This document shows positions 19,301 through 25,300 of a DNA stretch of 64,000 nt, one piece after another. Source of the stretch: Allacma fusca (lineage: Eukaryota; Arthropoda; Collembola; Symphypleona; Sminthuridae). The notes beneath the pieces were generated by a model. It was not told the origin of the DNA. It ran no database searches and was given only the letters and a program-made list of their open reading frames with translations. The stretch is from contig OX359247.1 of NCBI GenBank assembly GCA_947179485.1, forward strand, positions 42,012,801 to 42,076,800, in the 5' to 3' direction. The first letter of the stretch is position 1, and every line of letters starts with the position of its first letter. A program made the translations under genes and the position numbers.

Positions 19301-22300
19301 ATGTTTGTACAACTTTATGGTACATACTGCAGTGTCGCGGTAGCTACAATAATACATACATATAACGCAGTAAAATCTACAGTATATGGAATGAGAGTAA
19401 ACAAAATTCCAGTGAGGGTATCTACTGCTAGAGAGTGTCAAGCAGAGCAAACTCACTACTACAGCCATGTTTCCAGCACCTGGAAAGGAAAGTCAATACT
19501 CCTTCCACTACACTCCATGAAACACGTGTATAAGAACTACAAAATCTACAGTACATAATTACATATCTGTGTATCTTACAGTAGGATCAGCCCATTGTAA
19601 AATACTGGCATGCAATAGCTCTGCACGGGGAAACACATATGAGTCATTTGAGAATTATTGTAACACAATACGACAAGAGACACAGAGGAGGGAATAGCTA
19701 CTACTACTACTACCTCATATGTACTCCTCATATCCTCTCTTCTAATTTGAAGGAGTGGATAGTGATAGTGAAAGTGAAAGTGGTCGTAAGAATCAAATAT
19801 TCGCGCGCTCATTTCAGTCACTGTAAACCAACGCCAACGAAGCGTGGTCACTGGAGGAGTTGAAGCAAAAGCATGCTTAAGCATAGGAGTGCGTGCAATC
19901 TAATGCACGAGCACACTTTCGCTTCAACTCCTCAGTAAGCCGACGCAACTTGACGAGGTAGGATCTGCGACAGTGTGCACTCGGGCGTGTAGTTTTTTGG
20001 AAATTCTCGGCTGTGGTTTCAGCTCTCTTTTTCCCAACCTCATGGTACTCCTATGCCTAAGCATAGGAGAGCCAAAGGGTTGGGGTAACGAGAACTGAAA
20101 CCACAGCCGAGAATTTCCAAAATTTTAAATTATTTTGGAAATTCTCCGCTGTGGTTTCAGCTCTCTTTTTCCCAACCTCATGGTACTCCTATGCTTAGGC
20201 ATAGGTGAGCCAAGGGGTTGGGGAAACACGAACTGCAACAATATCCGAGAATTTCCAAAATAATTCCAAATTTTGGATACACTCTTTGTTGTGGTTCCTG
20301 AAATTTGTCTGTGGGTTTCTTTTGTTCCCACTGAAAGCCACCAGTCTTGGACAGGAGAACTAAGGAAAACCACAGACAAATTTCAGGAACCACAGCAAAG
20401 AGTTCAGAAGTTTGTTTTAATTGTGAGTGTTAATTGTTTTTTCAGGTATTGCTGCTGTTTGGTGTCGTGAGTTTTTATTGATTGTAAATATTTTATTTGT
20501 ATTATTTTGTATATTTGTAAATTCATGGTGTAAATTCATGGTGTAAATTATTTATGTAAATTATTTATGTAAATTATTGGTGTAAATTTTATTGGTGTAA
20601 AGTATTTATGTAAATCATTAGTGTAAATATTATTGGTGTACATATTATTGGTGTAAATTTTATTGGTGTAAATATTATTTGTAAATTGTGGGCGTACATA
20701 TTATTTGTAAATTATGGGTGTAAATTTTATGCGTAAATTGTGGGTGTAAATACTGTTGTAAATTCTGGGTGTAAATATTGTTTGTAAATAATTTGTATAT
20801 TTGTATTTATTCAGATCATGATGTTTATTTGATTTTTGTTTTGTAGGTTCCAGGTGTGTTGTATTTTATATTTTAATTTTTTTCAGGTTCCAGTTCGTGA
20901 TTAGCTGCTGCAGAGTTGCTGCTGTTTGTTCCGTCATTCTTATTTTTGTGAAGGTGTTAATTTATTTGATGTTATGATGTATGTATTTGGTTTGTTTATT
21001 TCCTGCCATAGTGGTTGTTCATCCTGGCCAGCTTCCTGCCATAGTGGTTGTTCATACTGGCCAGCTTCCTGCCATAGTGGTTGTTCATACTGGCCAGCTT
21101 CCTGCCATAGTGGTTGTTCATACTGGCCAGCTTCCTGCCATAGTGGTTGTTCTTGGCCAGCTTCCTGCCATAGTGGTTGTTCTTGGCCAGCTTCCTGCCA
21201 TAGTGGTTGTTCTTGGCCAGCTTCCTGCCATAGTGGTTGTTCTTCTTGGCCAGCTTCCTGCCATAGTGGTTGTTCTTCTTGGCCAGCTTCAAGCCATAGT
21301 GGTTGTTCATCCGGGCCAGCTTCCTGCCATAGTGGTTGTTCTTCTTGGCCAGCTTCCTGCCATAGTGGTTGTTCATCTTGGCCAGCTTCCTGCCAAAGTG
21401 GTTGCTCTTGACCTGGCCAGCACCCTGCCATAGTGGGCTGACATGGATGGCCAGCGCCCTGCCTCAGTGGGTGAATTGATTTTTTTTTAAGTTTGTACAA
21501 TGTGGTTTATTTTTTTATTTTTTTACAGCATGCTACCATTCCGCCCACGTGCACCCGGAGCTGACGTGCCCATGAGAGCCCCGAACATCCGGAACCGGAC
21601 AGTCTGCCGGTACTGCGTGCATTGCCATCATGCAGTGAGCACTTCTTGGGGTAAGATCCTGTATTTGAGTTTGAAATGTATTTATTTATGTTATTATTTA
21701 TAAATATATATTATGTATTTAATCATTTTGTTTTCAATTCCTTAGATCGTTGCCGATTCGAGTACTGCGGGCAACCCGTACTGTCTGGACAAGGTGTCCC
21801 AATGCCGCCCGCTCCCAGGGGCTGGTTTGTGTGTGATGGTTGTAAGTGCGTCTTTATAAAAGGTATTATTCCCAACATTTATTTGTTTTTATTCTTTGTA
21901 GAGTTTATATTTAAATAGTGACGCAATAATTTTTTAATTTTGGTTTTTCAGATGGCCAGCGCTTTTGCGCACTCTGTCAGTGGCGAACCCCGGCAGGGGA
22001 AGCCTACCAGCGTGTGCTGCATCAGCACATACGACGAGTGATGGAACAGCAGGAGGCCATCAAGAATATGCTCAACCCGATGGTATCGCAACCCGTTGAG
22101 AGGAACCCGGTGCTTCCGATCGTGGCTGTACCCAATCCGGGAATCCCCGCAGCGGTTCAAGTTCCAGTCCCAGTTCAAGTTGAGGACGTATTCGCCGATG
22201 TTCAAATAGAGGACATGTTGTTGGCGGACTAAATTTTTATTAAAAAATGAACTGATTTTATGCTATCATTATTATGATGAGGACTATTATTATTACTATT

Positions 22301-25300
22301 ATTTACTTTTTATTATTGATATTATTACTGCCATAGTGGTTGTTCATATTCTTGGCCAGCTTCCTGCCATAGTGGTTGTTCATCATTTTATATTAACATG
22401 CATCAATAAATAAATTATTAACACGCATCATCAGCATCCGCACATACATACTTCCCCGAATTACACTAACTTCAAATGAGGGTGAATACCCGTTTGTTTT
22501 ACGAAGGAGGCAATTTCCTGTCAAGCTAAGCTTCTCCATGACTATAAACAAGTCACAGGGTCAAAGTTTTAGTAAAGTAGGTATTTGGTTATCAAAACCC
22601 GTTTTTACTCATGGTCAACTCTATGTAGCATTTTCTAGAGCCAATTCTCGAGACAATGTAAAAGTATTTGTGGATAAAACTGAGGACCAGGGGGAACTAC
22701 AGGGTCCAGGGAATGGTACTTATACAATTAATTGTGTGTACCCCGAAATATTATAATTTGCAATAAAATTTAACATTTTACCGGATATTAAGCTTATACT
22801 AGCACTGCAAAGCCAGCTATTGCGTACAACTATTTACTGCCTTCGATACTTACATTTGCCTTTTTGAGCCAGCAATAGCTGGCTGTGCAGTGCTAGTAGC
22901 AAATAAGTCAATAATATTGACTCAATATAAAAGGTTCCTGTGTTGTAGTACATTGTGGTAGTATGTTGTAGTAGTGGGAGAGTAGATAGATAAACTGTAA
23001 ACTGTATCGTCTAGACTGTCATTACTACAAACAAACGGACAAGCATGTGTTACAAGAGACAATTATGGAGAGATAGCTAGACATATCTATATCTATCTAT
23101 GTGTGTAAATAAATACTTAAGACAAAAAAAGGGACAGCATCGTACTTCGTACTAATTGACAGTCCACATGTTCATACATACATATCTTTACATACACTCA
23201 TCCCATAAACTGTGTGATTATCTGGCACTGGTATTGGTAATGATTTCCTAATCATTTCTCCTTTGCTGACATTCCATAAATTATCTCTAGTCTACAAATA
23301 TATATATATGTTAAATGCATTTGCAGGTAATATAATGTGAATGGACCAAAAATCCTTTATTTTCTTCGAACAGAAGGTACACGAGTCAGTTGTATGTACG
23401 TCCCTATGTAATCCTGTACATGTAAAACTATAGGCGTAAAATCATATCAACAGTGTGTAAACATTTGAAAAACGTTAAGCTCCTTGTTTTGACTCAATGT
23501 AGTATTTTCAAATGCCACCATGTGTATGTGGAAACTACGAAATATTATCAGCCATCAACGAAGAACTATCAACTTCCGGCTTCTAGTGCTAAAAGTGTAT
23601 AGATTTTGGCAATAATCCACTCGTCAGTATACTTCCTGACAATGATCGATGCTTTCTGAGTGAAAAAAAGAGAGAGGGAAGTTCCCGCTATTTTCCTTTC
23701 ATACATATATGTACATATGTTAGCAGAGACATCAAGTAAATAAGGCAAATCCTCATGCAACCAGCACAAAACCCGTGCAGAATCACATATACTGACATCT
23801 ACATATGTATGTGTATCTACGCTTAAGTAATTACATTATTTAGCACATTTTCCAGAACTAGAAAGTCATATATTTCAAAAGAAGCACCACAAAGAGAAAC
23901 CAAATCGGCATGCACGTACTCGTTATAATTAAATCAACACATTTCTTTGAAAGTATTTTCCCTATTTTCCTTCCCATGAAAGGCTCCAGTTTTACTTCTT
24001 GAAAGGTTGTTCCACTCAACTCATAATAACTGTTTCTTAAGTTCATTTGGTTATGGGACATCGGACATCGTCATTTAACGCTAATATGTAATTCTAAACT
24101 ACGGCCAGATACACTCTCTCAAATTTATTGTAGATGCTTTCATCTGGACTAAATTAGTCCGAAAAAAAAATTTGTTTCCTTCCAACAAAATCCACCACGT
24201 TATGAATTTTCTATATCTGCATTTCATACTTGATGAAGCATTTAATATTCAATGAAAAAAATCACATTTCCCTGGGAACTCTAAAACAACGAAAAAAAGA
24301 GAAAACAGAGTAATCAGGAGGCCGTAAAATCGGCTCAAATACGCATGCATCCTCCTCATCCTTTTTTTTTATTGCACACTCATCTATAGGACTCATGTTT
24401 TTCTACTCTCAACCAACTTACAGAACTGAAATGAGCCTCAAACCTGACTCTTGATACCATTTCCAATGGATTCGAATTGGTCTTTTGCAAACTGTTAGGT
24501 CATCCAGAATTTATGGCCTAAATAAATTACTTTACCAAGTTGTAAGGATGCATCGTCCTCCAGCTATATCGGCAGTGGTGTCTGCTCACTCAACAGATAC
24601 CATGACCCCGTACACATAGATCCGCTGGTTTCAGTTGAATCAGGTGCATAATGCATATATATATATACTCAACTTTCCTTACAAAAGCCATAACAGAGAA
24701 TTCAAATTGCATCACATTGCCAAAATAAAGCCCGAACTGGTTTTGCATCTTTCCTACCTTAATTAAATTTGTGGGAAAAAAAGTTCCTGTGCACACAATC
24801 CGTTAGTGCCGCCTTCCAATAATGAGCACCCCGCTCATTGATCATCAGTGCAGTGCAGTGCTACTAAAAATCTCACACTTTAAACAGTTATCCCAAAATA
24901 TACGTAACTAATAAGGATTCCAAATGAGTCACTACTGTTACAGTTAAAAGAGACCAGTCTTGGCAGTAATCCCATTACTAACCTTCCAATCATATGATCA
25001 CCATCCAGTTAACGTGTACACACAAGCTAATCATCTATGCAAATACGGTACAACAGCATTATCATTGGTCATCCAAACACTGGAATTCTAACTGCAGTCA
25101 TCATCAGTGGATTCTGACAATGAGAGCCTCTTCTTAGCTCATTCACGCTAGTGCCATTAAACTAGTACTACCCAAATGCTAATTATTTGTATTAGCATAA
25201 TAAGATGACTAAATCTGATCAAATTAGCACGATCCTGCACTCAACGTAAGCTGAACACATAGATAACTTCATACAATGCACTCCTTCATATTCATATTTC

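What the first reader, a model, noticed from the sequence alone, without database searches (positions are those of the whole stretch)
19853..22897. Composite Helitron-like island carrying an intact intron-containing Cys-rich gene
A helicase tail of Helitron type, a terminal-looking 26-bp inverted repeat, hairpins and minisatellites surround a gene whose three exons keep frame across two GT-AG introns. Helitrons capture host genes with introns. Here the captured gene looks intact while the helicase is truncated, which suggests selection on the cargo, recent capture, or an element family that encodes this protein itself.
Basis: partly seen in the sequence, partly recalled or inferred. Interest (0 to 1): 0.75.

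Follow-up and report, generated by a model that had tools for sequence, protein, structure and literature searches.

The report
Chimeric Helitron carrying another Helitron's gene
This stretch is a jumping gene of the Helitron type that has taken in a piece of a second Helitron, including that element's own small zinc-finger-like gene and the repeated DNA motifs around it, which suggests that the gene belongs to Helitrons and travels between their families rather than being a captured animal gene.

Summary
The element is 19733-22896: host A^TC at the left, an 18-nt hairpin 8 nt before CTAG^T at the right, both ends shared by many copies of a high-copy "family B". Between B's first ~95 bp and last ~446 bp lies 2.6 kb of another Helitron, "family A" (19823-22451), 99.7-100% identical outside the arrays to a complete 8.1-kb element on contig C1. 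There the Cys-rich gene sits upstream of Rep-Hel, as in 19 of 56 gene loci (0 of 56 in the mirror position). So it is a Helitron accessory gene: zinc-ribbon-like, introns conserved, three A-type pairs with dN/dS 0.16-0.20. A second B chimera with a diverged version occurs at six places. Tandem arrays around the gene share a 23-bp core; of 21 listed genomic core clusters 18 lie within 3 kb of the gene, same strand, one more beside a gene remnant; but 15 of 29 gene fragments show no core. I infer, untested, that the protein binds the arrays, as plant VANC proteins do. Telomere repeats point to an arthropod.

The parts
19733..19827 (+). 5' end of Helitron family B (starts TCCTCTCTTC after host A at 19732)
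   Evidence: 99 of 100 bases (19732-19831) to a B copy on C12; 38 of 41 matches from 40 scored candidates are 90/90 identical, window included
19823..19827 (+). left B/A junction, 5-bp microhomology GTAAA
   Evidence: comparison of window, B copy and C1 copy
19823..22451 (+). captured fragment of Helitron family A (lacks A's first 101 bp, Rep-Hel and 3' end)
   Evidence: 2 mismatches in 678 nt, one gap in 865 nt, 0 differences in 67 nt against C1; array lengths differ
19995..20260 (+). two tandem 138-bp units, each a near-perfect hairpin; related hairpins in other A-type 5' regions
20281..20403 (+). further long hairpin of the A 5' region
20512..20789 (+). AT-rich minisatellite (TGTAAATTATTGG-like units)
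21000..21436 (+). 33/30-bp tandem array; 23-bp core TGGCCAGCTTCCTGCCATAGTGG, 13 cores at 3 mismatches or fewer, all on the + strand
   Evidence: core conserved among elements
21530..21650 (+). coding exon 1 of the zinc-ribbon-like gene (splice-acceptor-like AG at 21527-21528 just upstream)
21746..21862 (+). coding exon 2
21952..22232 (+). coding exon 3, ending TAA; acidic C-terminus
22325..22384 (+). short downstream array (one core at 22353-22375; the C1 copy has 11.6 units of 36 bp)
22451..22756 (+). C-terminal end of the family-B Rep-Hel helicase (truncated)
   Evidence: 22451-22898 is 448 of 448 identical to three B copies and one mismatch from two more; 72.7% over 286 nt to A's helicase
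22867..22896 (+). 3' terminus of family B: 18-nt palindrome AGCCAGC-AATA-GCTGGCT, 8 nt, CTAG, then host T

Best explanation
The island is one young, non-autonomous, chimeric Helitron (19733-22896). A family-B Helitron lost its interior and took in 2.6 kb of a family-A Helitron, by a join with 5 bp and 1 bp of microhomology such as template switching would leave (inferred), then inserted between A and T (inferred from the ends). The 172-aa gene is the accessory gene of family A, which lies between A's 5' hairpins and its Rep-Hel gene. Its product is a small zinc-ribbon-like protein with a proline-rich linker and an acidic tail. The repeated 23-bp core around the gene is most likely the protein's own binding array, so gene and array travel as one cassette; I think the protein binds the array and raises expression or counters silencing of the element. 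Shown by sequence: the chimera, the accessory-gene status, purifying selection, the association of core and gene. Inferred: DNA binding and its effect. The confidence below is for the chimera and the accessory gene; for binding of the array I would give about 0.45.
For: Both B ends recur in many other places. 11 pairs of B ends lie 6155-6296 bp apart (my matching of the coordinates); 10 of these 11 hold a 1599-aa open frame with a Rep-Hel match, and none of the 11 has a listed match to the gene. A fragment and its C1 relative, 8143 bp from TC to CTAG. C1 Rep-Hel: Helitron_like_N 3.7e-63, PIF1 6.5e-55, Helraiser 1.1e-298. Rep-Hel within 7 kb downstream of the gene, same strand, in 19 of 56 loci; upstream in 0 of 56; opposite strand in 1 of 56 (all 150 listed Rep-Hel rows). 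dN/dS 0.16, 0.20, 0.16 among three A-type copies; 66 of 66 pairs with pS > pN among 12 models. Core: 15 of 23 core columns identical in 7 elements against 1 of 18 flanking columns; 183 genome matches against 0 for the reversed pattern; 18 of 21 clusters of the 100 listed matches within 3 kb of the gene, same strand, one more beside an exon-1 remnant. Second chimera with gene and array at six places.
Against: The chimera is single-copy, so that this very element has transposed is inferred from its ends, not from sister copies. No empty site is found in this assembly. 15 of 29 gene-bearing fragments show no core at 6 mismatches or fewer; 10 of those 15 are fragments of 0.8-1.2 kb, but L018, L019, L021, L023 and L024 are about 10 kb. 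No Pfam zinc-ribbon model reaches its cut-off in the members whose cut-offs were shown. 37 of 56 gene loci have no Rep-Hel within 7 kb downstream among the listed rows (the list was capped). 11 of 29 fragments gave no gene model and 2 of 18 models hold stops. The youngest pair has dN/dS 0.46. No transcript, binding or activity data.
Confidence: 0.85

Rival explanations
1. A Helitron captured an intact host gene and carries it as cargo.
For: Helitrons capture gene pieces with introns (general knowledge; read-through capture of flanking DNA in PMC4778049, passages); the gene has spliceosomal introns.
Against: The gene occurs at 56 loci, sits upstream of Rep-Hel in 19 of them and shares 5' hairpins and arrays with Helitrons. 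The origin of the gene family before it joined Helitrons is unknown.
Confidence: 0.06
2. Nested remains: family A inserted into a family-B copy and later deletions removed A's two ends and B's interior, so the island never moved as one unit.
For: A's own ends are missing and the chimera has no second copy.
Against: It needs an insertion plus at least two deletions. B's ends are unmutated (90/90 and 448/448) and the A piece is nearly identical to C1, leaving little time. A comparable chimera with B ends is present at six places.
Confidence: 0.15
3. The arrays are neutral minisatellites with no link to the protein's function.
For: Minisatellites occur in other Helitrons; rice Mothra elements have tandem-repeat blocs (PMC4683698, passages). 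15 of 29 gene fragments show no core.
Against: The 23-bp core is kept between elements whose spacers and unit lengths (26-53 bp) differ and whose genes have synonymous divergence near 1; same strand as the gene at the 18 clusters near it.
Confidence: 0.35
4. The arrays encode a repetitive peptide (they hold long open frames in the window).
For: Open frames of 126-186 aa across the window array.
Against: Periods in other elements include 26, 31, 32, 38, 40 and 46 nt, not multiples of three.
Confidence: 0.03

Closest known systems
Helraiser / Helibat (bat Helitron; PMC4778049, passages read)
   Same: 5'-TC, CTAG-3', palindrome shortly before the 3' end, A^T insertion, Rep-Hel (C1 frame matches Helraiser at 1.1e-298)
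   Different: In the passages read, Helraiser has one 1,496-aa transposase gene; family A carries an additional intron-bearing zinc-ribbon-like gene with tandem arrays
Mothra and its sister family in rice (PMC4683698, passages read)
   Same: An accessory gene (RPA-like) beside Rep-Hel in autonomous elements, accessory-only mother elements, tandem-repeat blocs
   Different: Here the accessory is zinc-ribbon-like, and the accessory-only elements seen are chimeras that carry another family's ends
VANC anti-silencing proteins of VANDAL transposons (PMC5735166, passages read)
   Same: A transposon accessory gene with tandemly repeated, same-orientation short motifs in the element's non-coding DNA
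   Different: VANC localisation, binding and effect are shown in Arabidopsis; here binding is only inferred, the element is a Helitron in a probable arthropod, and homology to VANC was not tested
HELPO1 of Pleurotus ostreatus (PMC4289320, passages read)
   Same: Putative autonomous Helitrons that carry further genes of unknown function
   Different: Those genes lie downstream of Rep-Hel in a fungus and are described there as captured; any sequence relation was not tested
FoHeli3 of Fusarium oxysporum (PMC5148889, passages read)
   Same: Extra ORF upstream of the transposase, said to occur only in Helitrons
   Different: That ORF has the opposite orientation and no known domain; any sequence relation was not tested

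Membership tests
canonical Helitron (window element) | 5'-TC next to host A | tested here: met
   A at 19732, TC from 19733
canonical Helitron (window element) | 3'-CTRR next to host T | tested here: met
   CTAG 22893-22896, then T
canonical Helitron (window element) | short hairpin shortly upstream of the 3' end | tested here: met
   18-nt palindrome 8 nt before CTAG; folding z only -1.65, the stem being 7 bp
canonical Helitron (window element) | dispersed copies that share both ends | tested here: met
   B ends and the six-place chimera; not the window chimera itself, which is single-copy
canonical Helitron (window element) | Rep (HUH) plus PIF1-like helicase in the autonomous partner | tested here: met
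   C1 copy of A, Pfam; B copies with a 1599-aa frame matched by the N-terminal part of A's Rep-Hel
canonical Helitron (window element) | empty site without duplication | tested here: inconclusive
   joined flanks match only this locus
double zinc ribbon (Pfam DZR) | score at or above Pfam's cut-off | tested here: not met
   best DZR 21.1 bits against cut-off 27.3; Zn_ribbon_3 26.6 against 27. Called zinc-ribbon-like, not filed as a member
double zinc ribbon (Pfam DZR) | paired cysteines suited to two zinc sites | tested here: met
   CxxCxxC, CxxxxC, CxxC, CxxC: eight cysteines invariant and C43 nearly invariant in 10 sequences; zinc binding itself not tested
VANC-type system | tandem same-orientation motif arrays in non-coding DNA of the element | tested here: met
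   a core in 14 of 29 gene-bearing fragments
VANC-type system | protein binds the motif and lifts silencing | not testable with these tools
   needs binding and methylation or expression assays
VANC-type system | sequence homology to VANC | not tested
   no VANC sequence was compared

The most novel reading that the evidence does not exclude
Animal Helitrons carry a self-contained regulatory cassette, a zinc-ribbon-like protein with an acidic, activator-like tail plus a bracketing array of its own 23-bp target, that works like plant VANC anti-silencing and jumps between Helitron families by chimera formation, giving the recipient family a ready-made defence or expression system.
Probability: 0.25. 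Interest if true: 0.82.

Novelty: new variant of a known kind. Interest (0 to 1): 0.6.

Why it matters
The passages that I read describe extra Helitron genes as captured host or foreign genes, or as RPA, OTU, tegument-type deubiquitinase or endonuclease accessories (PMC4683698, PMC4289320, PMC9741609). A small, intron-bearing, selected accessory gene with a co-conserved target-like array, exchanged between Helitron families, would be a modular regulatory system inside a rolling-circle transposon. A donor-like copy, the recipient family and the product are all in one genome with near-perfect identity, so how such chimeras form can be read directly, and the link of protein and array can be tested by one gel-shift experiment.

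Tried and rejected
Host-gene capture: disfavoured by the position of the gene upstream of Rep-Hel. Arrays as coding repeats: disfavoured by periods. Accessory protein as a duplicate of Rep-Hel's own N-terminus: profile comparison gives probability 0.2%, no support. Relatives elsewhere: none confirmed in IMG/VR (47 pattern matches) or in GTDB contigs (114); no convincing PDB match; NCBIfam gave one weak match in 2 of 10 members, best E 0.017. No collection of animal genomes or proteomes was on hand, so absence elsewhere in animals is not shown. Empty site: the flanks match only this locus. Species: not identified; TTAGG arrays at the end of contig C1 point to an arthropod (inference). Gene models: 18 built out of 29 fragments by a motif-anchored script; 11 gave none. 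Six of the 18 were dropped from the selection test: C1 as identical to the window, two with stops, one truncated, one running off its fragment, one with a 39-nt intron. My first count of gene loci beside Rep-Hel used a hand-picked part of the rows, including three weak rows taken because they lay near genes; I repeated it with all 150 listed rows and the counts did not change.

Literature: paper searches were made; passages were read in seven papers, no paper in full. None of these listings or passages described a zinc-ribbon-like accessory gene with an array in a Helitron; subscription papers and Repbase are not covered.
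Full report
WHAT IS THERE. The window is contig C10:42012801-42076800 of a 392.7-Mb genome. The gene DNA (21530-22230) has one other identical copy, C1:44395373-44396073, 701 of 701; the other 13 of 15 matches are 65-89% identical.

TWO FAMILIES. Comparison with the C1 copy shows shared sequence from 19823 to 22451, with different sequence on both sides. On the right, C1 continues into a leader of 27-bp repeats and a 1217-aa open frame followed by a 252-aa frame; the first matches Helitron_like_N, PIF1 and Helraiser. The C1 element runs from A^TCTCTAAAA to CTAG^T, 8143 bp, C1:44389721-44397863; I call this family A. 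The window instead continues at 22451 into a helicase end only 72.7% identical to A's over 286 nt but 448 of 448 identical to three of five fetched copies of a second family, B, and one mismatch from the other two. Of 40 scored candidates out of 1357, 15 are listed at 100% (rounded) over the tail, the window included. B's 5' end was then found at 19733: 99 of 100 bases to a B copy on C12; 38 of 41 matches from 40 scored candidates out of 495 are 90/90 identical, the window included. Matching the coordinates by eye gives 11 B elements of 6155-6296 bp; 10 of the 11 hold a 1599-aa open frame with a Rep-Hel match, and none of the 11 has a listed match to the Cys-rich gene. The first 2.5 kb of one of them (L067) shows no 23-bp core. 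So B is young, probably active recently, and full-length B lacks the gene as far as seen.

THE CHIMERA. At the left junction B and A share GTAAA (5 bp), at the right one base. Against C1 the A piece differs by 2 of 678 bases in the 5' part, by one gap in the AT-rich minisatellite, by one gap in 865 in the gene part and by 0 of 67 after the array; the downstream array is much shorter in the window. The insertion is A^T with canonical ends. An empty site could not be shown. A second and different chimera exists: 2813 bp, with B ends (96% over 288 bp at the left, 98% over 303 bp at the right), its own 31-bp array and a diverged version of the gene. It is found at six places: three complete at 100%, one complete at 99%, one interrupted and one with about 200 bp missing. 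Gene-carrying elements without Rep-Hel have therefore amplified, presumably with B's enzyme (inference).

THE GENE BELONGS TO HELITRONS. A protein search gives 124 matches, which I grouped into 56 loci. In 19 of 56 a Rep-Hel N-terminus lies 0-7 kb downstream on the same strand; in 0 of 56 it lies upstream; one locus has one on the opposite strand (with all 150 listed rows); two of the 19 share one Rep-Hel, and one of the 19 is a weak gene match (C12:13589877, E 8.4e-4). Of 15 loci with the A-type 5' hairpin region, 12 have the gene within 4.5 kb downstream. A motif-anchored script built models for 18 of 29 fragments; intron 2 is present in all 18, intron 1 in 14; two models hold stops. Twelve models compared: 66 of 66 pairs have pS > pN. 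Only five pairs had dS below 1.2: the three A-type pairs give dN/dS 0.16, 0.20 and 0.16, C1_14534 against C8_18920 gives 0.17, and the youngest pair, C8_28691 against C1_43850, 0.46; the others are more diverged or saturated. Between C1 and C9:38877 synonymous divergence is 0.41 in Rep-Hel but 1.06 in the gene; either the gene half and the Rep-Hel half have different histories, that is, the 5' module has been exchanged before, or they differ in mutation rate.

THE PROTEIN. Cysteines C26, C29, C32, C48, C70, C73, C85 and C88 are invariant and C43 nearly so in 10 sequences, with the signature GQRFCxLC. Best matches are zinc ribbons (Zn_ribbon_3 4e-06 and DZR 3.6e-04 in the best member; DZR in 7 of 10 members at E up to 1), below Pfam's cut-offs wherever these were shown, so I say zinc-ribbon-like. 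A proline-rich linker of variable length leads to a tail with 4-9 acidic residues in the last 20 and at most one basic residue, in 12 of 12 models; it reminds me of acidic activation domains such as that of VP16 (recalled, not compared).

THE ARRAY. Tandem arrays upstream, and in C1, C9:1703, C1:14534 and (shortened) the window also downstream, of the gene share the core TGGCCAGCTTCCTGCCATAGTGG, while unit lengths range from 26 to 53 bp and spacers differ. Consensus units of 7 elements (one of them from a single unit) agree in 15 of 23 core columns and 1 of 18 flanking columns. In the window there are 14 matches at 3 mismatches or fewer, all on one strand, expected 0.00. Genome-wide, the degenerate core (at most 1 mismatch) occurs 183 times and its reversed control 0 times; only 100 places, all exact, are listed, and they form 21 clusters. 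Against this, 15 of 29 gene-bearing fragments show no core at 6 mismatches or fewer: ten are short, but five are about 10 kb, so some subfamilies have lost or replaced the array. Co-occurrence, fixed orientation and conservation between elements make a protein-binding array the most economical reading, as in VANC/VANDAL (PMC5735166, passages). Binding was not tested.

THE 5' HAIRPIN. Nine sequences of the 129-nt hairpin keep 86.6% of cells paired against 82.4% (sd 0.9) in shuffles, with a covariation score of 0.180 against 0.121 (sd 0.014) for shuffles and at most 0.087 for slid partners. Two other measures are not beyond shuffles: pairs with a change on both sides (12 against 10.0; 119 of 500 as high) and further pair types (26 against 28.5; 439 of 500 as high). 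The structure was derived from one of the sequences, and conversion between the arms could also keep the pairing.

VERDICT. An ordinary mechanism, Helitron chimera formation, with an unusual passenger: another Helitron's accessory gene and its repeat array. New variant of a known kind.

Noticed in passing
C10:46182687-46185499 (L064:188-3000) and five other places: Second B-ended chimera with a diverged zinc-ribbon-like gene and its own 31-bp array, at six places with 99-100% identity over the parts present.
   Followed up: yes
C5:5681663-5687817 and ten similar loci: Nearly identical full-length family-B Helitrons, 10 of 11 with a 1599-aa open frame: likely recently active autonomous Helitrons.
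   Followed up: partly
window 19995-20123 and relatives in L017, L020, L025, L034, L036, L037, L049, L053: Long 5' hairpin of A-type elements, with some support for conserved pairing; role unknown.
   Followed up: partly
C1 element just upstream of Rep-Hel; L067:641-1230: Both families A and B carry tandem repeats built on CTGTCTTTTTAAAGACA, a nearly palindromic unit, shortly before Rep-Hel.
   Followed up: no
L067:1494-1816: The family-B Rep-Hel frame holds an in-frame 90-bp tandem repeat (30-aa units) near its start.
   Followed up: no
C8:28691, C12:57040 and C9:40610: Three A-like elements with the same spacing of hairpin and gene and near-equal match scores; possibly another fairly recent family.
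   Followed up: no
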